A stretch of DNA of 56,381 nt from a bacterium (GTDB lineage: Bacteria > Myxococcota_A > UBA9160 > UBA4427), in assembly GCA_024742285.1 (NCBI GenBank), contig JANSYR010000024.1, forward strand, positions 1 through 56,381. The letters run 5' to 3'. A program made the translations under genes and the position numbers. How positions within the stretch are numbered: the first letter of the stretch is position 1; every line of letters starts with the position of its first letter. The notes beneath the pieces were generated by a model. The model was not told the DNA's origin. It searched no databases and saw only the letters and a program-made list of their open reading frames with translations. Shown piece after piece: positions 1,247 through 15,610 of the stretch.

Positions 1247-2806
1247 TCAGCGTTCGGGCGCCGCCATCCAGCGTGCGGCCCCGTTCTCGGAGGCGACGAA
1301 CCCTGCGCCACCTCGGAAGATGCTCGTTCCGGAGGTCTGATCCTCGAAGACCTGCAGCTCGTAGCTGCCCTGGTCCCCGAAGCTCACCACGATCTCGTCG
1401 CGGCCATCCGCGTCGATGTCACCGAACGCCGGCCGGACGGTCTCGTTCGCTTCTCGGGCCGCGTCGCGCCCGACCTGCATCCGCAGGAAGCCGGGGTAGC
1501 GGTCGATCTGCGTCGAGAGGGCATCATCCAGGAAGAGCACCCAGCTGTCGCTGCCGGCGCCGTAGCCGATCGCGAACTCGTCGAGGCCGTCTCCGTCCCA
1601 GTCTCCGAGCGTGGGGTACGTCCCGCCACCCCGACCATCGTCGTCTCTCGCACCCGCCACCCGGACGATGCCGTTTCCGTTCTCGATGCTCTCGTGCCGG
1701 GCGAAGGCGCGGAGACCGTCGTCCAGGATCGCGATCGCGCGATGTCCGGCCGCGGTGAAGCCGACGACGAGCTCGTCTCGTCCGTCGCCGTCGATGTCGC
1801 CGAGGGCCGGCACACATCCTGTTCCGGCACTCCCCAGCCCCCCGGGCGTGGGCGCGCGGACGATGCCGCCCGTGGAGCCCGCGAAGGGGGCGAAGCCCGT
1901 GTCCGCGCTGTCGAACGCGGCGAGGTTCGAATTCGCTGCAGGGCCGAGGCCGATCACGAGTTCGTTTCGCCCGTCGCCGTCGACGTCGCCGCAGGCCGGA
2001 TGGGTCTGACCGTCCGCCCTGTGGTAGTCGGCGTCCCCTGCGACCACGGAGTCGATCGAGGAGACGTCACCATTCTCGAGATGGATGAGGGCGACCTGGC
2101 CGTCGCTGCCGGGGCCGAAGCCGACGACGAGGTCGCTGTCGCCATCGCCGTCGAGGTCGCACCGCGTCGGTCGCAGATCGCGCGTGGCGGCGAGGGAGTC
2201 GATCGTCAGGTCGACCACGCGGCCATCGCCGTGAACCATCGAGATGAGGCCGGAGGCGTCCGACGTCAGCCCGATGCTCGCCATGGCGTATTGCGCGGCG
2301 AGCGTCGTCCCGAATCCCGGGTCGACGACCGGATCCGAGATCCACTCCCGCTCGGGGGGCAGTTCGGGGGTCGGCTCCGGAGCCGGCTCCCCGCCGGGCC
2401 CCGGCGAAATCGGAGCCGCCCGCAGGTGGTATTCGTTCGAGAAGACCGACTCCAGGCCGTTCTCGTCGTAGCTCGAGAGCGCGACGTAGAGATCGGTCGA
2501 GGTGTCGATGTTGGTCGAATAGGCGAGGACGGAATCGTCTTCGCTCGGCCGGCCGAGGTCGACCTGCTGGACGTAGTTGCCGCTCTCGGTGCCGAGGTGG
2601 AGCATGTATCCGACGACCGTCGGCGTGGGGCTCGGGCGGAACAGGATGTAGTGGTGTTCCGGCCCGGCCATCGCCTCGCCCTGGAGCCCCAGGGTGAGAA
2701 GCGCCGTCAGGAGACCCAGACGGTGCAGCGCGCGTCTTCGCGAAACGGAAGCGCGCGACGGTCGAGGAAGGAAGCAGGTCGTGGATCGCAGGGTCTTGCT
2801 CGGCAT
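1247..2806 (-). CDS. secreted FG-GAP/VCBS repeat protein with N-terminal fibronectin-III-like domain
   Basis: 519 residues from ATG at 2806. An in-frame upstream start at 2926 exists, but the chosen start puts an Arg-rich n-region and hydrophobic core (LGLLTALLTLGL) with an AMAG cleavage site at the N-terminus. Residues about 50-145 look like a fibronectin-III/beta-sandwich domain. A Pro/Glu-rich linker follows, then at least five repeats carrying DxDGDGRDE-type calcium loops and FG-GAP spacing, i.e. a beta-propeller. It is presumably exported and surface or periplasmic. No enzymatic motif is visible, and propellers of this kind usually bind ligands or partner proteins. No strong ribosome-binding site precedes the start. 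It stands alone and converges on the rRNA operon. Confidence 0.8.
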   Translation of the reverse strand: MPSKTLRSTTCFLPRPSRASVSRRRALHRLGLLTALLTLGLQGEAMAGPEHHYILFRPSPTPTVVGYMLHLGTESGNYVQQVDLGRPSEDDSVLAYSTNIDTSTDLYVALSSYDENGLESVFSNEYHLRAAPISPGPGGEPAPEPTPELPPEREWISDPVVDPGFGTTLAAQYAMASIGLTSDASGLISMVHGDGRVVDLTIDSLAATRDLRPTRCDLDGDGDSDLVVGFGPGSDGQVALIHLENGDVSSIDSVVAGDADYHRADGQTHPACGDVDGDGRNELVIGLGPAANSNLAAFDSADTGFAPFAGSTGGIVRAPTPGGLGSAGTGCVPALGDIDGDGRDELVVGFTAAGHRAIAILDDGLRAFARHESIENGNGIVRVAGARDDDGRGGGTYPTLGDWDGDGLDEFAIGYGAGSDSWVLFLDDALSTQIDRYPGFLRMQVGRDAAREANETVRPAFGDIDADGRDEIVVSFGDQGSYELQVFEDQTSGTSIFRGGAGFVASENGAARWMAAPER

Positions 2807-3196: not shown

Positions 3197-3769
3197 CTAC
3201 GCCGCCTCTTCCTCCCCGTCCACCTCGAGACCCGCATCGATCGAGCGGGCCAGGCGACCGTAGAGGCCGATCTTCAGGCTCTCGAGGGTCGCGTAGCCGA
3301 CGAGGGCGAAGATCGTCGAGGAGAGCGCCAGGGCGAGGGCGCCCATCTGCAGCACGTCGTTCGAGATCCGCATCGAGAGCAGCAGGACCGCGAGGCCGCA
3401 GGTCGTCCCGATGAAGCCGATCGGCGGCAGGATGTTGGCGTACATCGAGATCGGCTGGGCGAAGCTGGTCTCGTAATCGTCGATCACCAGCTGCTTGGCC
3501 GCGTCGCGCACGAAGGGCAGCTCCTGATCGCCGTCGAGCTGTCGCGTCGCCGAGGTCGCGACCGCACGGGTCAGGGCGACGACGCCGGTCGCTCCAGCCG
3601 CGCCCGGGTCGCGGGGAAGGGCCGTCGCACGACGGGCCCGCCAGCAGAGGAGGGTGCCCCGCGCGAGCGGGATCCAGACGGCGATCAGGGAGATCGCGCA
3701 GACGACGAGGGTCACGCGGAGCTCGCGGGTGCCCAGGTCGAGGATGGGTTCGATCATGACCGGATCCAT
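3197..3769 (-). CDS. MotA/TolQ/ExbB proton-channel family protein
   Basis: 190 residues from ATG at 3769, preceded by a strong GGGAGGTG ribosome-binding site. It has one N-terminal membrane helix (about 20-38) and the family signature in the C-terminal half. That half contains a helix with PPIGFIGTTCGLAVLLLS and a second helix with LALALSSTIFALVGYA, the Pro/Gly/Thr residues lining the ion path in TolQ/ExbB/MotA. An acidic tail ends the protein. It is the inner-membrane stator/motor subunit expected to use the proton (or sodium) gradient. It is the last gene of a five-gene minus-strand operon; its start overlaps the preceding lipoprotein stop by one base (TGATG). It pairs functionally with the ExbD-like protein at 7726-8265. 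Confidence 0.88.
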   Translation of the reverse strand: MDPVMIEPILDLGTRELRVTLVVCAISLIAVWIPLARGTLLCWRARRATALPRDPGAAGATGVVALTRAVATSATRQLDGDQELPFVRDAAKQLVIDDYETSFAQPISMYANILPPIGFIGTTCGLAVLLLSMRISNDVLQMGALALALSSTIFALVGYATLESLKIGLYGRLARSIDAGLEVDGEEEAA

Positions 3770-4320
3770 CAGGCACCTCCCGTCTGGTGTCGGAGGAGGG
3801 CGATCCCCTGCTCGAGTGTGACCGCCTGTCCCGTCGGGTAGAGCACGAGCATGCTGGTCATCGAGGCGAACTCCTCCTCGAGTCGGTCGATCGTCGCGCG
3901 GACGGCGCCGGCGTCGCCGATCTGGTGGAGCAGCACGGCCTTCGAGAGCAGGAGCTCCGCGTGGAAGGGGCGCAGCTCGGGATGCGAGACCGCACCGTCG
4001 TGCTCGATCAGCGGGTCGACGCGATCGGTCAGGTAGGGCCGGGCGAAGCGCACGAAGCGCTCGATGCCCGCGGCCTTGCCGTGTCGCTGGAGCTGCTCGA
4101 GGGTGAGGCGGAAGCTTCCGAGGTCGCGACGGACGCGACGCATCGAGTACTTGCGCTGGGCGAGGGCCTCTCCGGCGAGCTGGGCCTCGAGGGCTTCGCT
4201 GCCGGACTGGCGCTCGAAGAAGGCGGCCTGCGGGCCGTTCTGGAAGAGGCAGCCCGTGGTCAGGACCGCGGTGGCGACGCTCAGGGCGAGCGGCGTCAGG
4301 AGTCGGCGGGTTCGATTCAT
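3769..4320 (-). CDS. small lipoprotein of the motor operon
   Basis: 183 residues from ATG at 4320, with GAGGA upstream. A short basic n-region and hydrophobic core end in lipobox LTTGC with the acylated Cys at residue 24. The residue after it is Leu, so outer-membrane sorting is likely under the usual +2 rule. The mature part is almost all helical, with TPR-like helix pairs (ALEAQLAGEALAQRKY, AELLLSKAVLLHQIGDAG). It carries no catalytic motif. It lies between the large coiled-coil protein (47-nt gap) and the ExbB-like gene (1-nt overlap), so it is probably a structural partner tethering the complex to the outer membrane. I do not recognise a named family. Confidence 0.75.
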   Translation of the reverse strand: MNRTRRLLTPLALSVATAVLTTGCLFQNGPQAAFFERQSGSEALEAQLAGEALAQRKYSMRRVRRDLGSFRLTLEQLQRHGKAAGIERFVRFARPYLTDRVDPLIEHDGAVSHPELRPFHAELLLSKAVLLHQIGDAGAVRATIDRLEEEFASMTSMLVLYPTGQAVTLEQGIALLRHQTGGA

Positions 4321-4367
4321 CGTCGTCGTTCCTCGTCGAGGGTTCTGGTCGTGTGTTGCGTGAATGC

Positions 4368-6614
4368 TCATCGTTCCTCCCCGGCGGCCCAGCTCTGGAG
4401 GATCTCCCACGCGGCCTGGGAGCCCGCGCTGGTGGCCTCCGGGGCCGGTGCCGGACCGGTCGTCGGCGCGTACTCCTCCGCGTAGCGGCGGAGCAGACCG
4501 TGGACCGGGTGGTCGCGCTGGGCGGCGAGCTCGCTCTGCAGCGCCTCGTGTCCGAGCGTGGCCTTGAAGGTCGGGAGCGAGTGGGCGATCGCCCGGATGC
4601 GCGCCTCGAGGCGCTCGTGGTTCGAGCCGAGCCGTTCGAGATCGAGGCCGAGCTGGGCGATCTGCTCGCTCTGCCGCGTGCGCCCGTTGCCGCCGATGGC
4701 GACCGCCGGCGGGGCGGGGCCCTCGTTCTCGCCGGAGAGCTCCGCGGCCAGTCGGTGGGCCTCACGGCGCTCCGTGTTCAGGCCGTCGCGCTCGGTCCGG
4801 GTCGCCGCCACCCGGGCCGCGACGTCGTCCCGCTCCGCCTGCAGGCGAGCGAACTCCGCTTCGAGCTCGGGGAGCTTCGACTCGTCGGCGAAGCCGAAGT
4901 AGACGAGGCTGCGATCGTTCTCGAAGGCGGTGCGGAAGCTGGCCATCTCCTGTCCCCAGACGCTGCCGTTCTCGATCCAGCGATCGAGGTGGCGCGAGCG
5001 GACGACCCCGTCGGCGATCGGCTTCGCCACCGCCAGGAAATCGCTCTCGCGGCCGGAGCGCTGGAGAGCGACCGCGAGGGTCGACCACAGGGCCCGATCG
5101 AAGGGGAAGTACCCGAGCGCCGTCTGGTACTGGGTGATTGCCTCTTCGAGCTGGTCGACGGAAGCGTCGCCGCCGGCGAAGAAGAGCACGCCGTCGCCGA
5201 TCCCCCGGGCCGCCAGGTAGGCGCCGAAGTAGGCGGAGTCGGGTAGGGACTCGCCGGTCGGATCCCCGGCGAACGACTCGAAGGCGTGGAGATAGCGCGA
5301 GTAGGTGTTGATCGCGTGGACGATCGCCTCGTCGGACGCCGGACCGCCCTGGTCGCGCCGCGACATGTAGTAGGCGGCCGCGTTGAAGCTCGCCTCCTGG
5401 ATCTCGGACCACAGGCCCTGCATCGCCGTCAGGTAGGCGTCGCGCCCCTGATCGACGTAGCCCTGCCGGTCCCAGTCGCCGTCCTTGGCCGCGTGGAGCG
5501 AGCCGTAGAGCTCGAGCGCGCGCTCGATGCTGAACGGGATGTCGAGGGTCACTTCCGTCTCGGTGCGTTCGGCGGTGGCGTAGACCTCGCCGACCTGGCG
5601 CAGCGCCCGGGAGTAGATCGCGATCTGTCCCTGGAGCGTGTTCGCGTTGCGCATCGCGCGCTGGTACGCGGCGACGGTGTCGCGGACGGCGGCCTCGCTG
5701 GCCGCGTCGAAGCCGTTCTCGGCGAGATGCTTGCGCGCCCGCTGATGGGCGCGTTCGGCTTCGATCAGCGCGAGGGTGTAGCTCAGGCTGCCGCCGTCGC
5801 TCTCCGCGCCGTCGAGCCGCGCGACCACGTGGTCGAGGAAGGCCTTCGACGTCGCATCGACCGGAATCGCTTCCGGGTCTGCGCCGACGCGTTCGTCGGT
5901 CAGGACCCGGACGATGGCGCCGAGGGAGTCGATGTCTCCGTCGAGGGCCGCCGTCTGGCTCTGCACCAGGATCAGGCGGGCGACGCTCTCGTAGAGGTGC
6001 GGAAGCGTCCGTACGAACCCGGCGTTGCCGTTCTCGGTCAGAGCGAGGGTCTTGTAGGTCTCGAAGGGGACTTCGAGGGGCGTGATCACGCCGAGCCAGA
6101 CCGAGAGGATCTGGTCGACGAATGCCGCGGCGTCACCGCCCTGCAGTGCCTCGTGAGCGTGGATCGTGTGGAACCAGTAGCGGTTCTCGTGCCGGTCGAG
6201 GCGATCCTCGAGCTGGTCGATCGTCGCGACGGCGTCGGCGAGACCGGAGCGTCGGTCGCCGATCCGGTGGAGGAGCAGCTCCGCGATCGCCTTGCGTCGG
6301 AGCTGGATTTCCGTCATCGGCGTCTTGCTCGCGGCGAGCGCCGGGAAGGTCTCCGCGTGGTAGTCCGCGAGGCTCCGGCCGACCACGTGCGTGGTGCGCT
6401 CGAGGAGCGCGCGCAGGTCGGCTTCGTCCGCCGCCGAGTAGACGTAGGCGTGATCGAGGTAGTCGTTCCAGCTCGGCTGCGCCGCGGCCATCGCCTTCGG
6501 GGCGACGAAGGCGAGGAGGCCTGCGAGCACGCCGAGCACGGCCGCGGGCCGCGTCGACGTTCGGGGCCGACGCAACCGGCGACCCGGTCCATGGTCGAGG
6601 GATGTCTGCATCAT
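4368..6614 (-). CDS. large periplasmic helical-repeat/coiled-coil protein of the motor operon
   Basis: 748 residues. The start is ATG at 6614 (a second ATG follows at 6611); it overlaps the upstream TonB-like gene by ATGA, with AAGGAG 11 nt before it. A long basic n-region, hydrophobic stretch (VLGVLAGLLAFVA) and AMA-AAQ cleavage site indicate export. The bulk (about 50-570) is alpha-helical with TPR-like spacing (for example YQTALGYFPFDRALWSTLAVAL). Residues about 578-680 form a heptad-rich, Arg/Glu-rich coiled coil. No enzyme motif is visible. Its position between a TonB-like and a lipoprotein gene argues for a periplasm-spanning scaffold. The paralogous helix pattern in the next lipoprotein suggests that the two interact. 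Family not recognised. Confidence 0.78.
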   Translation of the reverse strand: MMQTSLDHGPGRRLRRPRTSTRPAAVLGVLAGLLAFVAPKAMAAAQPSWNDYLDHAYVYSAADEADLRALLERTTHVVGRSLADYHAETFPALAASKTPMTEIQLRRKAIAELLLHRIGDRRSGLADAVATIDQLEDRLDRHENRYWFHTIHAHEALQGGDAAAFVDQILSVWLGVITPLEVPFETYKTLALTENGNAGFVRTLPHLYESVARLILVQSQTAALDGDIDSLGAIVRVLTDERVGADPEAIPVDATSKAFLDHVVARLDGAESDGGSLSYTLALIEAERAHQRARKHLAENGFDAASEAAVRDTVAAYQRAMRNANTLQGQIAIYSRALRQVGEVYATAERTETEVTLDIPFSIERALELYGSLHAAKDGDWDRQGYVDQGRDAYLTAMQGLWSEIQEASFNAAAYYMSRRDQGGPASDEAIVHAINTYSRYLHAFESFAGDPTGESLPDSAYFGAYLAARGIGDGVLFFAGGDASVDQLEEAITQYQTALGYFPFDRALWSTLAVALQRSGRESDFLAVAKPIADGVVRSRHLDRWIENGSVWGQEMASFRTAFENDRSLVYFGFADESKLPELEAEFARLQAERDDVAARVAATRTERDGLNTERREAHRLAAELSGENEGPAPPAVAIGGNGRTRQSEQIAQLGLDLERLGSNHERLEARIRAIAHSLPTFKATLGHEALQSELAAQRDHPVHGLLRRYAEEYAPTTGPAPAPEATSAGSQAAWEILQSWAAGEER

Positions 6615-7720
6615 CTCGTTTCGATCTCCTTGCTGGGAGTTCCTTCCAGGCAGCGCAGGGCGCGCTCCAGGACTTCGCACGCGTTGCGCGGGCCGCTCGT
6701 GGCTCGCTTCGGCGTGTCGTGATTGCGGGCGCCCATCAGGAAGGCGTTCAGGTTCCGCGTCTCGAGGAAGCGGTAGGCGCCTTCGGCGTGGGTGCAGGTG
6801 GGTCGGTCGGCGGCGGCGAGCATGATCCGTCGCTTGAGCGCGTCCTGGCGTCCGGCCGGGTGGCAGTCGGGCAGGTCTTCGAGGGGCACCGCCTCCCAGC
6901 CCTCGGAATGGAGCTGGTCGAGCGCGGCTTCGCGCACGGCGAGGGCCGCGGCGTTCGAGGACGTCGCGACGGCCGGCAGCGCCCGGTCGCGGGCCCCCTG
7001 AACCGGGACTGCGGTGGCGTCCGCGTCGAGGCCGGCGAGGAAGGCGCGCCGATCGTTCATCGCGTCCCAGGCGGGCGTCGCGGGGGTGTCGGCTCCGCTT
7101 CGGGCGGTGGGGCGCGCGTTCTCGCGGGTGACGTCCGGGAGGGTGCGCGGCGTGTCCGGTCCGCCGTCGGGTGTGCTGCCGGCGCGGGGGCTTCGCGGGA
7201 CGGCCAGCGCGAGATCGGCCAGGGCGCGCGCCGTCGGGAGACCACCGGGCCGCGTCGCTGCGGGGCGATTCGGCGCCGGCTGCGTCGCCAGCTCCGGGAT
7301 CGACGGCGCACGGGTCGCCGCGAGCGCGCGGGGATCGAAGGGGAGCGTCGTTTCCGGCTCCGCCTCGGGGGCGGGCTGCGGCGACGCGTCGGCGCGAATG
7401 TCCGGCACCGGGATCGGCTCGCTCTTCGCGAGCGGCCGCGGCTTCGGGGGCACGATCGGATCCGGCGGCACGTCCCAGGCATCGGCGACGAGGACCGTCG
7501 GCACTTCGAGTCCCTCCGGCGGGGTCGTCGCGACCGAGGCCAGGCTGCCTACCAGGGCCGTAAGGACCAGGCAGGCCAAGCCGGGCGCGAGCGATCCGAG
7601 CCGCTCGCCGGCGATCGGTGCGCGCGCCGTCGTCGACAGCGACTCCGTCTCGATCGGGGTGCCGAGGGATAGACGCGCGGCGCCGCGCCCGAAGCGGCGA
7701 TGCATCAAGAGGGGATCCAT
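6611..7720 (-). CDS. proline-rich TonB-like envelope-spanning protein with a four-cysteine C-terminal domain
   Basis: 369 residues from ATG at 7720, five bases after the ExbD-like stop. An N-terminal cytoplasmic stretch of about 45 residues is followed by one membrane helix (LACLVLTALVGSLASV). Next comes a very Pro/Ala-rich segment (PPDPIVPPKPRPLAK onwards, about 80-240) like the rigid periplasmic arm of TonB. The last 110 residues are helical with four cysteines in contexts CHP, CTH, CEV and CLE, which could form two disulfides. This end does not look like the canonical TonB beta-alpha-beta domain. The role inferred is transmission of ExbB/ExbD-type force across the periplasm. Its 3' end overlaps the next start by 4 nt. 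Confidence 0.72.
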   Translation of the reverse strand: MDPLLMHRRFGRGAARLSLGTPIETESLSTTARAPIAGERLGSLAPGLACLVLTALVGSLASVATTPPEGLEVPTVLVADAWDVPPDPIVPPKPRPLAKSEPIPVPDIRADASPQPAPEAEPETTLPFDPRALAATRAPSIPELATQPAPNRPAATRPGGLPTARALADLALAVPRSPRAGSTPDGGPDTPRTLPDVTRENARPTARSGADTPATPAWDAMNDRRAFLAGLDADATAVPVQGARDRALPAVATSSNAAALAVREAALDQLHSEGWEAVPLEDLPDCHPAGRQDALKRRIMLAAADRPTCTHAEGAYRFLETRNLNAFLMGARNHDTPKRATSGPRNACEVLERALRCLEGTPSKEIETR

Positions 7721-7725
7721 CCCGA

Positions 7726-8265
7726 CTAACGCGTTTCCGTCGCGGCGGCGGCGGCGACGTCGTTCGGGGCCGGGGTCGCTTCGTTCGTGGAGGGCGCGCC
7801 GGCGCCCGGTCGAACGGCGCTGACGCGCGCGCCGCCCCAGGTCTCGTCGAGCAGGGCGACGGCGACGAGGAGATCCTCGGCACGCGCGTCGCGGTGGGGC
7901 GCCAGGATCGGCTTGGTTTCGCCGCGACGGTCGAGGAGTCCGAGCGCGGCGGCGAGGTCCTCGGCGCTGCGCGACGTCGACGCGTCGGGGTCGGCGCCCG
8001 GCTCGATCAGCACGAAGGGCGCGTGGCTCGCGGCTTCGTCGACGGGGGCGGGCAGCGGGTGGATACGGAGCTGCCACACGTCGGCCTTCGCGGGAAGATC
8101 GGTGGGTGCGCCGGGGCCGTGGATGCGCGGGATCTCGATCGTCGCGAGATCGAGACGGTCCGGGTTCTCGCGCGGCCCGATCTGGGTGAACGCGATCAGG
8201 AGCAGGAACGCCAGATCGACGAAGGAGAAGAGCCAGATCGGCGCAGATCGTTCGTGTCGCAACAT
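7726..8265 (-). CDS. ExbD/TolR-family protein
   Basis: 179 residues from ATG at 8265. A short basic cytoplasmic start leads into a single membrane helix SFVDLAFLLLIAF, in which Asp17 is the conserved proton-relay aspartate of ExbD/TolR/MotB. The periplasmic part has an ExbD-like alternation of short beta strands and helices (LLDRRGETKPILAPHRDARAE). The tail is Ala/Thr-rich. In-frame starts further upstream (8337 ATG, 8385 GTG) would add a poorly conserved-looking leader, so I place the start just before the helix. No ribosome-binding site is evident. Instead a stable inverted-repeat structure ends two bases before the start. First gene of the operon. Confidence 0.8.
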   Translation of the reverse strand: MLRHERSAPIWLFSFVDLAFLLLIAFTQIGPRENPDRLDLATIEIPRIHGPGAPTDLPAKADVWQLRIHPLPAPVDEAASHAPFVLIEPGADPDASTSRSAEDLAAALGLLDRRGETKPILAPHRDARAEDLLVAVALLDETWGGARVSAVRPGAGAPSTNEATPAPNDVAAAAATETR

Positions 8266-10435: not shown

Positions 10436-13131
10436 GCCGTCGTCTCCGCGGCCGCGTCCGTCGAAGCCCCGATCGGCGGGGACACGCCGGTCACGACCAG
10501 CAGCGCGGGCAGGAAGACCAGGTTGGCGACGACGGTCCAGAACATGCCGATCGTGAGCATCACGCCGAGGGTGTGCATGCCTTCGTGGCCCGAGAGCGCG
10601 AGCGTTCCGAACGAGAGCGTCGTCGTCACCGCGCTGTAGAACACCGCGCCCGCGGTCGCGCTCTCGACCAGCGATCCGGGGAGCGAAGGGCTCGCGGCGA
10701 GGTGGCGGGCCCGGTGGACGAGGTGGATCCCCGAGTCGACGCCGATGCCGAAGAGCAGCGGCAGGACGAGCACGTTCGCGAAGTTGAAGTCCATGTCGAT
10801 GATCGCCATCGAGGCGCAGGTGAGCAGTGAGCCCAGGGTGAGCGGGGCGAGCACCAGCGCCACGTCCGCCGGTCGTCGCCAGAGCACGAAGAGGAGCGTC
10901 GAGATCGCCAACGCGGCGGAGATCAGGGCCTGGCGGAAGGAGCGCGCCGTCGCCTCGCCGAATTCGACCAGGTTGATCGCGATTCCGGCGGCGCGCGGCG
11001 CGACCTCGAGGACGCTCGACACGAAGCGCTTCAACGCCTCGAAGTCCTGGAGCTCTTCCTCGGGATAGGCCTGGATCCGGTGCGTTCCGTCGGGCGCTCG
11101 GAGGCGTCTCACCAGCTCGGCGGGCAGGTCCTCGAGGGTGACCGCGGTCGGGTCGAGAGAACGGCGGAAGCGCGAGATTTCTTCCGGGAAGCGATCGAGC
11201 AGGATGTCGCGATAGTCCGACAGCACGCGGCCGGGGTCGTCCTCGGACTCGATCCGGCCGAGGAAGGTCTCGAGCCGGGACTCGAGGGCGTCGAGGGACG
11301 CGACGAGGTCGCCGTCGTCGTCGGGGCGCTCGGCTTGACGTAGGACTCGACGAAGGGTTCGGATCGCGTCGGTCTGCTCCCCGATCGTGTAGGCGGGACG
11401 GTCGTCTCCAACGGCTGCCGGCGCCTCCATCAGGAAGGCGAGGTCCGTCAGGATCTCGATCTTCTCCTCCTGGTCGTCCGGGATGTAGCTCGCCAGACGT
11501 ACGGTTCGGCCGATCTCCGGCCGCGCCTCGAGCGCCTCCGCCTCCCGTTCCGCCTCGGCAGGACTCGAGGCCAGGACGTTCACGTACCAGGGGGAGGTCT
11601 GGCCGTCGGCCAGGAGGTCGCGGAAGGCCTGGACCGACGTCGTATCCGGATCCCGCATCTCGATCACGTGTGCATCGAAGCGAAGGTCGAAGAGGAGGGG
11701 CACCGCGCTCGCAGCCAGCGCCGCGGCGCCGACGACGACGAGCCGGGGATGGCGCGCGATCCGGAGCGCCAGCGCCTGGTCGATCCGGGAGGGCGCCGGG
11801 ACGACGACGTCGTCCGGAATGCGCAGCCGCCCGAGCAGGAGCGCCGGAAAGAGGGTCAGCGTGAGGAAGAGGATGATGAACATGCCGGCGCCGGCGATCG
11901 CGCCGAGCTCGGCGACGCCACGGTACTCGGTGGGGAGGAAGACGAGGAAACCGATGGCCGTCGTGAAGCCGCAGAGCACGAGGGACGCACCGATGGCGTC
12001 GATCGCCGCGCCCAGGGACTCGCGGTTGGGCAGCCCGTGATCCCGGCGCTCGTCGGCGAACGCCATGCCGAAGTGGATGGCGAAGTCGACGCCGAGGCCG
12101 ATGAAGAGGATCGCGAAGGCGATCGAGATCAGGTTCAGCTCGCCGATCGTGAGCGCGGCGAAGGCGCCGGTCCAGACGAGTCCCACCAGGAGCGTGACGA
12201 GGGATGCGATCACGAGACGCCAGGAGCGGAACGCGAAGAAGAGAAGGACGGCGACCAGCGCGAAACAGAAGGCTCCGGCGCCCGCGATGTCCCAGAAGAG
12301 GCCGAGCATCTCCTCGTGGTTGAGTGCCGGGTTGCCGGTCACGCGCACGCGAACGCCGGGGGCGTCGACGAGTCCGGCCCTTCGCGTGGCCTCCGCGATC
12401 GCTTCCATGCTCTCGCCGGCCACGAGGATCCGGTCGAAGTCGAGGAAGGGATCCACGACGATCACGCGCCGGGTCGGGATCTCGAGGTCGGACCCGGCGA
12501 GCAACATCGACTCCCAGGAGAGTCGGACGGAGGCTTCCTCGTAGACCGCGATCGTCGCTTGCCCGACTTCGTCGAGGAGAGGCTTCCAGTCGCCGGTCTC
12601 GAACCCGGTCTCGCCATCGGACTCGAAGCCGAGCCGAACGAGCTCCGCGAGCTGGACCAGGCTCGGGTCGCGCTCGAGGCTGGCCAGGATCGGCTGGAGG
12701 GTCGCGACCTGGTCCGCGAATTCGTCCAGCTCGTCGGCGCTCTGGTAGAGCAGCGCATTCTCTTCGAAGAAGGCGCCTCCGCCCGGGACGTACACGTCGC
12801 GGAAGACGTCGCCCATCGCTTCGAGCTCTGCCGACAACGCATCGGTCGCTTCCCGCGCGAGCGCCGGCGTCTCCCCGTCGACGACGACCAGCATCGCCTC
12901 TTCGAGATTCGGGAAGAGCGCGGCGAAGGCAGCGTGGTTCTTGCGCGACTCGAGGCTCTTCGACACGAGGCTCAGGTTGTCGGCGTTGATCCCGAGGGCG
13001 AAGAAGGCGTAGACGAGGGCGGCGAGGGTCAGGGCGAGGCAGATCGCGGTGACGGCGTCGGGACGGTCGGCGATCCCGCGGAGCCAACGCTGCAGACGCG
13101 GCGTCAGCATCCTCTGGAGCGGTTCGTTCAT
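10432..13131 (-). CDS. RND/MMPL-family exporter, HpnN-like (hopanoid transporter type)
   Basis: 899 residues from ATG 13131. It has a duplicated RND layout: one helix near residue 30, a periplasmic domain (about 50-270) and five helices. A second periplasmic domain (about 470-700) is followed by five more helices. The proton-relay motifs are present in both halves (FIGLGVDFAIHF and LFGIGVDSGIHL). Length and the two-domain layout match HpnN-type proteins that move hopanoids to the outer membrane; related MMPL proteins move other lipids. No hpn genes are in the window, so the substrate is inferred from family only. Ends tail-to-tail with the cyclase gene. Confidence 0.8.
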   Translation of the reverse strand: MNEPLQRMLTPRLQRWLRGIADRPDAVTAICLALTLAALVYAFFALGINADNLSLVSKSLESRKNHAAFAALFPNLEEAMLVVVDGETPALAREATDALSAELEAMGDVFRDVYVPGGGAFFEENALLYQSADELDEFADQVATLQPILASLERDPSLVQLAELVRLGFESDGETGFETGDWKPLLDEVGQATIAVYEEASVRLSWESMLLAGSDLEIPTRRVIVVDPFLDFDRILVAGESMEAIAEATRRAGLVDAPGVRVRVTGNPALNHEEMLGLFWDIAGAGAFCFALVAVLLFFAFRSWRLVIASLVTLLVGLVWTGAFAALTIGELNLISIAFAILFIGLGVDFAIHFGMAFADERRDHGLPNRESLGAAIDAIGASLVLCGFTTAIGFLVFLPTEYRGVAELGAIAGAGMFIILFLTLTLFPALLLGRLRIPDDVVVPAPSRIDQALALRIARHPRLVVVGAAALAASAVPLLFDLRFDAHVIEMRDPDTTSVQAFRDLLADGQTSPWYVNVLASSPAEAEREAEALEARPEIGRTVRLASYIPDDQEEKIEILTDLAFLMEAPAAVGDDRPAYTIGEQTDAIRTLRRVLRQAERPDDDGDLVASLDALESRLETFLGRIESEDDPGRVLSDYRDILLDRFPEEISRFRRSLDPTAVTLEDLPAELVRRLRAPDGTHRIQAYPEEELQDFEALKRFVSSVLEVAPRAAGIAINLVEFGEATARSFRQALISAALAISTLLFVLWRRPADVALVLAPLTLGSLLTCASMAIIDMDFNFANVLVLPLLFGIGVDSGIHLVHRARHLAASPSLPGSLVESATAGAVFYSAVTTTLSFGTLALSGHEGMHTLGVMLTIGMFWTVVANLVFLPALLVVTGVSPPIGASTDAAAETTA

Positions 13132-13720: not shown

Positions 13721-15610
13721 TCAGAGGCTCTCGCGGAAGTCGCGGGTGATCGCCAACAGGTCGCGCAGGATCCGCTGGACGAGGGGGCGCTCGTTCGAGA
13801 GGTCCGGGGTCGGTGGATCGTCCCGCTGTTGGAAGTCCGCAAAGGCCTGGATCAGGCGGTGGGACTCCTCGGGGCGCAGGCGTCGGCGGTTCCGGCTCAG
13901 CCGGCGGGTTGCGTGGGTGAGCCCGTCGCCGGTCATCCGCGCGTAGGGGTTCCGGTCCCGGGCCGCGGGAGCGAGCCCGGCGAGGGTCGAGCGTCGGGAG
14001 CGGCGCTGTCTGCGGGCGAGCGCGTCGATCAGGTCGAGATAGGCCCGCTGATAGTCACGCGCGACGCGTCGCCGGTGGTCGGTCAGGCGACGATCGGTGC
14101 GCGAAGCGTAGTCGGACAGGGCGAGGTCGTAGAACGCGCGCGGGGACACGCGCGGGTCGTCTTCGCTCTCGCGCGCGAGGAGCAGGGCGGGCAGCTCGCG
14201 GAGCACGTCGCGCATGCAGTAGATCGCGTTCCACGAGAGTCCGTCGGGCACGGCGTGCTCGCCGCGGGAGGACCGGCGTCGTTCGAGGCGGTGATGGAGC
14301 GTGAGAAGCCGCTCGAGCGCCTCGGGTCGCGCACGCTCGAGCGCGCGCGCGTCCCGTGCGTCGAGTCCGATCTGGCGAAGGAAGAGGCGGCGTCGCTCGG
14401 ACTCGAACTCGCGGTCGAAGCGTTCGAGCACCGGGTCCTCCTTCAGGTCCTCGAGCGATGGCGCGCGGCCGTTCAGCAGGAGATCCCGGATCTGAGCGAA
14501 GCGCTGGACGATCTGCCGGGCCTTGCGGCGTTGCTCGGGGATCGACGTCGAGTAGCGGTCCGTGTCCTTGAAGCGATAGGAGTGGTGGTAGAGACCGAAT
14601 TGTCGAACGGAGCCGTAGTCGAGGATGCTGCCGTCGGTCAGGACGTTGTCTCCGTCCCAGTCGAGCCAGCAGAAGATGTACTCGCTCTCGAAGGTCGCGA
14701 CGGTGCGGGCGAAATCGGTGGCGACGCGTTCTGCGAGATGGCGGTAGCGCGCGGGCGCGGACCGGAGCTTCGGCCAGCGCCCGTCCCGGATCTCCCGCTC
14801 GGCGTAGTAGTCTACGAGATGACGCAGGTCCTCGTGCTCGCCGCGCCGGAGCAACCCGAAGAAGTGGGAAGGCCGCAGGAGATTGGGTGCGATCCGTACG
14901 TTGATCGCGAAGCCGGAGGGGAGAGCGAGAACGGCCAACACGCGTTCGGTGCGGACGCCGTTGCGATGGAAGGCCTCGCTCATCAAGGCCGCGCCGATCC
15001 CCTCGTCCACGTGGGCGGTGCCGCAGCCGTAATCGGTGATCACGTTGCCGGTCCGGAAGAACCGACCGTACTCCGAGGTCGCAGGGCAGAGCCGCGTCAC
15101 GCCCGTGCCGCAGCTCGAGACGTCGAAGCTGCCCTTCGGGCCCCGGAAGGAGCCGTTCCAGATGCTGCGTCCGTCGCCGGAGTTCTGGCCGCGCTTGTCG
15201 GGATGCTGGAGCTGCAGATAGCGCGTCGCCATGTAGGTGTGCGGGAGTCGGTCACCGGGCTTCGTGAAGCGCCCGTGCGCCTCGTCCCACTCGTTGACGA
15301 TCTGCAGGCTGAACGTGTCGAGCAGGGCGTCGCGCAGCGGAGCCGTCAGCCGGTCCGCATGGCCCGCCGGCAGCAGGCCGATCTCGCGTGCGAGGGCGAA
15401 GTTGAAATAGACGACCTGGCTGTCGCGCCGTCGGCGAGCGGGATACGGGACGACGGCACTCGGGGCCGTGCGCGCCAGGGGATGGCGACCGTCGATCGAA
15501 GCGAGGCGCGTGTAGTCGGCGGTGCGCGGACGGCCCGGTCGCTTGCCCGCCTGCTTGCGTGCGCGGGCGTTCGTCGGCGATCCGGGCCTTTTCCGGGGGT
15601 GTCCACTCAT
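13721..15610 (-). CDS. divergent SelO/YdiU-family pseudokinase (putative protein adenylyltransferase)
   Basis: 629 residues from ATG 15610. SelO proteins transfer AMP from ATP to protein Ser/Thr/Tyr using an inverted kinase fold. Family landmarks seen: SGDGRSIWNGSF (144-155, the DGR motif), SSCGTGVTRLCP (165-176, like the KGAGxTPYSR block), HVDEGIGAALMSEAF (200-214), and the metal-binding pair WDGDNVLTDG (318-327) with Asp331-Tyr-Gly. Typical SelO is about 480-500 residues. Here residues about 375-629 add a helical, very Arg-rich extension, and the usual C-terminal redox CxxU/C is absent. The overall similarity is remote, so activity is inferred. The gene is divergent from the FHA gene, across a 270-nt AT-richer promoter region (15611-15880). 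Confidence 0.65.
   Translation of the reverse strand: MSGHPRKRPGSPTNARARKQAGKRPGRPRTADYTRLASIDGRHPLARTAPSAVVPYPARRRRDSQVVYFNFALAREIGLLPAGHADRLTAPLRDALLDTFSLQIVNEWDEAHGRFTKPGDRLPHTYMATRYLQLQHPDKRGQNSGDGRSIWNGSFRGPKGSFDVSSCGTGVTRLCPATSEYGRFFRTGNVITDYGCGTAHVDEGIGAALMSEAFHRNGVRTERVLAVLALPSGFAINVRIAPNLLRPSHFFGLLRRGEHEDLRHLVDYYAEREIRDGRWPKLRSAPARYRHLAERVATDFARTVATFESEYIFCWLDWDGDNVLTDGSILDYGSVRQFGLYHHSYRFKDTDRYSTSIPEQRRKARQIVQRFAQIRDLLLNGRAPSLEDLKEDPVLERFDREFESERRRLFLRQIGLDARDARALERARPEALERLLTLHHRLERRRSSRGEHAVPDGLSWNAIYCMRDVLRELPALLLARESEDDPRVSPRAFYDLALSDYASRTDRRLTDHRRRVARDYQRAYLDLIDALARRQRRSRRSTLAGLAPAARDRNPYARMTGDGLTHATRRLSRNRRRLRPEESHRLIQAFADFQQRDDPPTPDLSNERPLVQRILRDLLAITRDFRESL

What the first reader, a model, noticed from the sequence alone, without database searches (positions are those of the whole stretch)
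3197..8265. Five-gene ExbD / TonB-like / coiled-coil / lipoprotein / ExbB operon
Overlapping or near-overlapping genes encode a complete energised trans-envelope system, but in an order opposite to classical exbB-exbD-tonB. It includes a 748-residue periplasmic helical scaffold and an outer-membrane lipoprotein. The TonB-like protein lacks the usual C-terminal fold and has a four-Cys helical end instead. No TonB-dependent receptor is nearby. This could be a dedicated motor for motility, cell-envelope constriction or lipid transport rather than nutrient uptake.
Basis: partly seen in the sequence, partly recalled or inferred. Interest (0 to 1): 0.65.

Follow-up and report, generated by a model that had tools for sequence, protein, structure and literature searches.

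The report
New ExbB-ExbD-TonB-like envelope motor family
The five genes are real and belong to an undescribed family of probably proton-driven envelope machines in uncultured bacteria; a sister copy in the same genome lies inside a block of disulfide, flavin and haem genes that comes and goes as one unit, which points to powering an outer-membrane redox or surface assembly rather than nutrient uptake.

Summary
In detail: five tightly packed minus-strand genes (8265-3197) encode ExbD-like, TonB-like, 748-aa TPR/coiled-coil, lipoprotein and ExbB-like proteins. The same set recurs in Myxococcota MAGs (scaffold in 22 of 379 phylum genomes) and, ordered lipoprotein-exbB-exbD-tonB-scaffold, in six genomes of another phylum, two of which carry canonical Pfam ExbB and ExbD there. 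The order here is a permutation, not a reversal. The transducer ends in a ~75-residue domain with four Cys invariant in 23 sequences; it matches no TonB/TolA family and is predicted alpha-beta-beta-beta-alpha. The window copy is a stand-alone paralogue. The host's other copy ends a contiguous block: ApbE, DUF3570, DUF4266, thioredoxin, DsbD, CxxCH protein, LamG/CxxCH lipoprotein, Tat protein, then the five genes. One congener lacks this 16.6-kb block at a clean empty site; two others keep relics of its end genes there. Cassette and motor co-occur in 18 genomes (Fisher p about 1e-21, phylogeny uncorrected). Best reading: an energising module for an outer-membrane thiol/flavin/haem assembly, redeployed alone in the window. 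Motility, Tol-Pal and receptor uptake are poorly supported. Energising function and client are inferred, not shown.

The parts
7726..8265 (-). ExbD/TolR-like subunit, 179 aa: one TM (WLFSFVDLAFLLLIA, Asp17) and a periplasmic domain
   Evidence: W11 L12 F13 F15 D17 A19 F20 L21 invariant in 18 sequences of two phyla. No Pfam hit; hhalign to canonical ExbD is weak (prob 11, E 0.0027) but aligns the TM Asp.
6611..7720 (-). TonB-like transducer, 369 aa: short cytoplasmic N-terminus with an FGRGAARL motif (YGxGaaRl in relatives), one TM (47-65), Pro-rich linker, four-Cys C-terminal domain
   Evidence: no Pfam or NCBIfam family found.
6611..6864 (-). Four-Cys C-terminal domain of the transducer (about 75 conserved residues, C286, C309, C348, C357)
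   Evidence: four Cys invariant in 23 sequences; AF2 alpha-beta-beta-beta-alpha, pLDDT 78.7; no known relative found.
4368..6614 (-). Periplasmic scaffold, 748 aa: signal peptide, TPR-like helical solenoid (about 49-575), coiled-coil hairpin (578-684)
   Evidence: profile matches TPR proteins, E 3e-7; AF2 pLDDT 85.3.
3769..4320 (-). Probable outer-membrane lipoprotein, 183 aa (200 aa if it starts at 4371); Cys24, helical
   Evidence: Cys24 invariant in 17 sequences of this phylum; homologues in the other phylum. The lipobox LTTGC is imperfect.
3197..3769 (-). ExbB/TolQ/MotA-like subunit, 190 aa, three TMs
   Evidence: PF01618 E 0.002, below cut-off; hhalign to canonical ExbB prob 94.6, E 6e-8.

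Best explanation
The five genes are one module of a new family of proton-motive-force-type trans-envelope machines. SHOWN: the gene set, its conservation in two phyla, and the family relation of ExbB. INFERRED: ExbB and ExbD form the ion-driven inner-membrane motor; the single-TM TonB-like protein carries its motion through a Pro-rich arm to a disulfide-stabilised four-Cys head; the head acts on the TPR/coiled-coil scaffold and the outer-membrane lipoprotein, and so on an outer-membrane client. In sister copies, including one in the same genome, the module is the tail of a block with a DsbD-thioredoxin-DUF4266-DUF3570-ApbE thiol/flavin electron-transfer set and a CxxCH / LamG-CxxCH lipoprotein / Tat-protein cassette. 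The ancestral client is therefore most likely that outer-membrane or surface redox assembly: the motor helps place, open or cycle it, and DsbD can serve both haem attachment and the Cys head. The window copy is a detached paralogue that keeps the five-part machine and works on an unidentified client.
For: Same five genes in about 13 complete Myxococcota loci and six genomes of another phylum. Conserved motor residues: ExbD Asp17 invariant, ExbB TM2 GT motif aligned to canonical ExbB. Canonical ExbB, fused ExbB-ExbD and ExbD fill the same slot in L107/L108. Four invariant Cys. Block in the own genome C9: OMP, secretin, ApbE, DUF3570 (with two [ST]GA[ST] sites), DUF4266, thioredoxin, DsbD, c6, c7, c5, five genes. 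Same neighbourhood in families f1, f4, f7 and f12. Genome-level co-occurrence of Tat protein c5 and scaffold: 18 both, 4 and 7 singletons of 379, Fisher 1e-21; within the own family 10 of 12 against 0 of 18, p 2e-6. Strong DUF3570 hits in 20 genomes, 16 of them scaffold-positive. G004 has a clean empty site: secretin directly beside c10, flanks 79-89% identical, 16.6-kb block absent; G006 keeps an exbB relic and G002 an ApbE relic at that junction. The DsbD-ApbE-DUF3570-thioredoxin-DUF4266 set is a known flavinylation cluster (PMC8238504).
Against: No experiment shows energisation, complex formation or a client. ExbD reaches the canonical family only weakly. The window copy and its clade (L021-L023, L025, L026, L040, L112) have no redox genes nearby, and G013, G022 and G192 carry only stand-alone copies, so the module does not need the block. 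The cassette occurs without the motor in 6-7 genomes. The distant-phylum copies (L104-L108) show no redox block.
Confidence: 0.5

Rival explanations
1. Secretin-directed motor: the ExbBD/TonB-like machine energises or opens the neighbouring orphan secretin to export the Tat/LamG/haem proteins, a secretion machine driven by proton-motive force and not by an ATPase.
For: A secretin with GspD N0 domain and a small beta-barrel sit beside the block in f1, f4, f7 and f12 loci. In the host this secretin is the only one of four without a T2SSE ATPase close by. The lipoprotein could act as a pilotin.
Against: The same long secretin family is present in many order genomes that lack the motor and stays behind when the block is lost (G004). 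G025 has the block without an adjacent secretin. No secretin lies near the window copy (the contig has none).
Confidence: 0.15
2. Agl-Glt-like motility or surface-transport motor.
For: Same parts list in outline: ExbB/ExbD motor, TonB-like protein, TPR proteins, in the same phylum (PMC3169522).
Against: AglRQS has two ExbD subunits and GltG carries FHA and canonical TonB domains; here there is one ExbD and a four-Cys head. No glt-type clusters seen beside any copy. The host has a separate ExbB-ExbD-ExbD cluster at C12.
Confidence: 0.08
3. Dedicated Ton system for a TonB-dependent receptor encoded elsewhere.
For: The host has 12 receptor plugs; one stand-alone copy (L112) has a receptor two genes upstream.
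Against: No TonB_C domain, no conserved TM His, no receptor on the window contig; the host already has two TonB operons with complete canonical parts.
Confidence: 0.12
4. Tol-Pal-like envelope constriction or outer-membrane anchoring system, with the lipoprotein as Pal analogue and the scaffold as CpoB analogue.
For: A TPR/coiled-coil periplasmic protein and an OM lipoprotein beside a TolQR-like pair.
Against: The lipoprotein matches no OmpA/Pal family; no TolB; the host has its own tolQ-R-A cluster at C19; patchy distribution and en-bloc loss are unlike a core envelope system.
Confidence: 0.07

Closest known systems
Ton system (ExbB-ExbD-TonB)
   Same: ExbB relation by profile, ExbD-type TM with Asp, one-TM Pro-rich transducer
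   Different: No TonB_C domain, no receptor linkage, extra scaffold and lipoprotein, permuted order
Tol-Pal (TolQ-R-A-B-Pal-CpoB)
   Same: Motor plus transducer plus TPR/coiled-coil periplasmic protein plus OM lipoprotein
   Different: No TolB, no OmpA-type Pal; canonical tol genes are elsewhere in the same genome
AglRQS-Glt gliding machinery of Myxococcus (PMC3169522)
   Same: ExbB/ExbD motor, TonB-like protein and TPR proteins across the envelope
   Different: Two ExbD subunits, canonical TonB domain on GltG, different partners
vWA-type force transducers (PMC12204202)
   Same: Motor-coupled TM and Pro-rich transducer with a new C-terminal domain, TPR gene nearby
   Different: vWA head there; a small four-Cys domain here
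DsbD-ApbE-DUF3570-thioredoxin-DUF4266 flavinylation clusters (PMC8238504)
   Same: The host's sister copy is contiguous with exactly this set
   Different: That paper's text mentions no ExbB and no secretin; the window copy has none of these genes

Membership tests
Ton system | ExbB: MotA/TolQ/ExbB channel family (PF01618) | tested here: inconclusive
   18.3 bits against cut-off 22.9, but hhalign to canonical ExbB prob 94.6, E 6e-8
Ton system | ExbD family (PF02472) with TM Asp | tested here: inconclusive
   No Pfam hit; weak profile match that aligns the Asp; Asp invariant; canonical ExbD in the same slot in L107
Ton system | TonB/TolA C-terminal domain | tested here: inconclusive
   No TonB or TolA Pfam hit in any of 23 members; hhalign finds nothing against a thin three-sequence TonB/TolA profile. 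The predicted fold is alpha/beta with no PDB match, and a shared fold cannot be excluded
Ton system | Conserved His in the transducer TM (SHLS motif) | tested here: not met
   No conserved His in the TM in alignment A2; window TM GLACLVLTALVGSLASVAT
Ton system | Outer-membrane receptor partner | tested here: inconclusive
   None on the window contig, 12 elsewhere
Tol-Pal | Pal with OmpA domain, TolB | tested here: not met
   No OmpA/Pal family on the lipoprotein; no TolB among the neighbours; separate tol cluster at C19
Agl-Glt | ExbB with two ExbD; GltG with TonB_C and FHA | tested here: not met
   One ExbD, no FHA or TonB_C
Agl-Glt | Homology of scaffold and lipoprotein to GltD/GltE/GltC | not tested
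DsbD/ApbE/DUF3570 flavinylation cluster (sister copy only) | ApbE, DUF3570 with [ST]GA[ST], DUF4266 with CXC, thioredoxin, DsbD together | tested here: met
   Own genome C9, Pfam over cut-offs; two flavinylation motifs; CXC tails. Not met at the window copy

The most novel reading that the evidence does not exclude
A proton-driven ExbBD machine with a redox-sensitive four-Cys transducer head acts as the mechanical part of an extracellular thiol-flavin-haem electron-transfer assembly, so that envelope force and extracytoplasmic redox state are coupled in one machine.
Probability: 0.2. Interest if true: 0.85.

Novelty: new variant of a known kind. Interest (0 to 1): 0.6.

Why it matters
Known ExbB/ExbD-type machines feed few described outputs: Ton uptake, Tol-Pal, gliding, and the recently proposed vWA transducers. 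This adds a widespread but uncharacterised five-protein family with its own transducer head, and links it by gene order and by en-bloc loss to a flavinylation electron-transfer cluster of unknown purpose. If the link holds, it gives a concrete test of how cells power outer-membrane redox or surface assemblies.

Tried and rejected
Foldseek and VIA-align of the four-Cys head and of the scaffold gave only weak or generic helical-repeat matches. Sequence search of PDB with the head: nothing. hhalign of the head against TonB/TolA C-termini: nothing, though the template profile held only three sequences. Terminator and promoter scans of the operon: none found. The secretin was first taken as a dedicated partner; it proved common in genomes without the motor and stays when the block is lost, so that reading was demoted. 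c5 as DUF1501-like: suggested by eye, not supported by Pfam. c6 has only sub-threshold PSD2/PSCyt matches. Two literature searches with combined terms found no paper.

Full report
Observation. The window encodes on its minus strand, in order, an ExbD-like protein (8265-7726), a TonB-like protein (7720-6611), a 748-aa protein (6614-4368), a probable lipoprotein (4320-3769) and an ExbB-like protein (3769-3197), with junctions of 5 nt, -4 nt, 47 nt (or -4 nt from an alternative start at 4371) and -1 nt. ExbD has one TM with Asp17, the TonB-like protein one TM and 13% Pro, ExbB three TMs. Pfam and NCBIfam give almost nothing: only a sub-threshold MotA_ExbB match for ExbB. Purifying selection is clear for the scaffold (dN/dS 0.10) and the Cys domain (0.16).

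Distribution. The scaffold profile finds 22 full-family genomes in 379 of the host's phylum; four further hits are short and near threshold and are not counted. Named records in a species-level collection are all uncultured MAGs called Myxococcota, Deltaproteobacteria, Proteobacteria or just bacterium. Genome neighbourhoods show the same five genes in the same order in about 13 complete loci and more at contig ends. A distant relative (L062) led to six genomes of another phylum, where the order is lipoprotein-exbB-exbD-tonB-scaffold. That it is another phylum is inferred from the disjoint set of genome handles. In L107 and L108 the motor slot holds a canonical ExbB (E 3.6e-25 in L107), an ExbB-ExbD fusion (7e-24 and 1e-7) and an ExbD (2.9e-15). 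This is the best evidence that the divergent proteins of the window are a genuine ExbB/ExbD-type pair. hhalign of ExbB against the host's canonical ones gives prob 94.6, E 6e-8; for ExbD only prob 11, E 0.0027, with the TM Asp aligned.

Transducer head. The last ~75 residues hold four Cys invariant in 23 sequences of both phyla, with a YRFVETKNLNAFLM-like core in the main group. The AF2 model (pLDDT 78.7) is alpha-beta-beta-beta-alpha, so 'helical' is not right. No TonB or TolA relation was detected by Pfam, profile comparison or fold search. The profile test used a thin TonB/TolA alignment, so a remote common fold is not excluded; TolA's C-terminal domain, as I recall it, also has a helix-hairpin-helix layout with a disulfide. 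The TM lacks the conserved His of TonB/TolA. The published new force transducers carry a vWA head, so they are different (PMC12204202).

Scaffold and lipoprotein. AF2 gives the scaffold pLDDT 85.3: a helical solenoid from 49 to 575 and a coiled-coil hairpin 578-684. Its profile matches TPR proteins in PDB at E 3e-7. The lipoprotein Cys24 is invariant in this phylum; the gene is conserved in the other phylum although the Cys is not.

Two classes of copies. A tree of 31 scaffolds puts the window with L021-L023, L025, L026, L040 and L112 (support 100/99), all without the redox genes next door; sister copies group elsewhere. The host's other copy is at contig C9, about 65.5-70.7 kb. Reading C9 from 50.9 kb: beta-barrel OMP, secretin, then on the other strand ApbE, DUF3570, DUF4266, thioredoxin and DsbD, then c6 (CxxCH), c7 (LamG plus CxxCH, lipoprotein-type), c5 (Tat signal), then exbD-tonB-scaffold-lipoprotein-exbB, then c10. 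The DUF3570 has two [ST]GA[ST] sites, the motif shown to be flavinylated; the ApbE-DUF3570-thioredoxin-DUF4266-DsbD set is a published cluster type of uncertain function (PMC8238504). The same neighbourhood, wholly or in part, recurs in families f1, f4, f7 and f12.

Association. Over the same 379 genomes the Tat gene c5 is in 25; 18 of these carry the scaffold, 4 genomes have scaffold only and 7 c5 only (Fisher p 1.2e-21). In the own family it is 10 of 12 against 0 of 18 (p 2e-6). One c5-only genome, G169, has the lipoprotein and exbB genes at a contig start, so it is really positive. These p-values ignore phylogeny.

Natural loss. In congener G004 the secretin lies 351 bp from c10, with no N in between, and flanks are 79-89% identical to the host. 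The 16.6 kb from ApbE to exbB is missing, and the OMP gene too. In G006 the same junction holds a relic of exbB (62% over about 95 residues), and in G002 a relic of the ApbE C-terminus beside the secretin. The relics at both block ends indicate loss. The block of thirteen genes behaves as one dispensable unit, while the secretin is kept.

Secretin. It is tempting to make the secretin the client, since it is the only one of the host's four that has no T2SSE ATPase nearby. But its family is present in many genomes without the motor and survives block loss, and G025 has the block without it. I therefore rank this as a rival at 0.15.

Mechanism. Inferred from the parts: a proton-driven ExbB/ExbD motor moves a TM arm, whose disulfide-stabilised head acts on the scaffold and OM lipoprotein, and so on an OM client. 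For the sister copies the client is most likely the thiol/flavin/haem assembly. For the window copy the client is unknown; genomes G013, G022 and G192 with stand-alone copies only show that the module can do without the redox block. Within the genus, the four genomes that have the window-type copy are the same four that have the block, which hints at some dependence.

Verdict. Real, conserved, undescribed as far as the libraries and papers searched here can tell; a new variant of the ExbB/ExbD/transducer class. Its function and energisation remain untested.

Noticed in passing
G000:C9:50889-70689 (L130, L030): About 20-kb locus with OMP, secretin, ApbE-DUF3570-DUF4266-thioredoxin-DsbD, CxxCH/LamG/Tat cassette and a second five-gene motor; the 16.6-kb ApbE-to-exbB part is absent en bloc in G004.
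   Followed up: yes
L144 (G006) 7674-7955; L143 (G002) 12650-12865: Relics of exbB and of ApbE at the junctions where the block is missing.
   Followed up: partly
L104 11671-14256; L105 11354-14020: A second, longer scaffold paralogue (861 and 888 aa) directly downstream of the five genes.
   Followed up: no
L107 1607-2911; L108 4784-6103: ExbB-ExbD fusion protein beside a separate ExbB and ExbD in the same operon.
   Followed up: no
L128 10268-15715: c7 homologue in a 1815-aa ORF with further CxxCH motifs, next to a small multi-CxxCH protein (seen by eye).
   Followed up: no
window 1247-2671: FG-GAP repeat protein downstream of exbB on the same strand; not conserved beside other copies.
   Followed up: partly
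window 13721-15610: 629-aa protein that by eye resembles SelO-type pseudokinases; not tested.
   Followed up: no
G000:C12:129542-130973: Separate ExbB-ExbD-ExbD cluster next to a TPR gene and a 467-aa coiled-coil protein, possibly an Agl-like motor.
   Followed up: no
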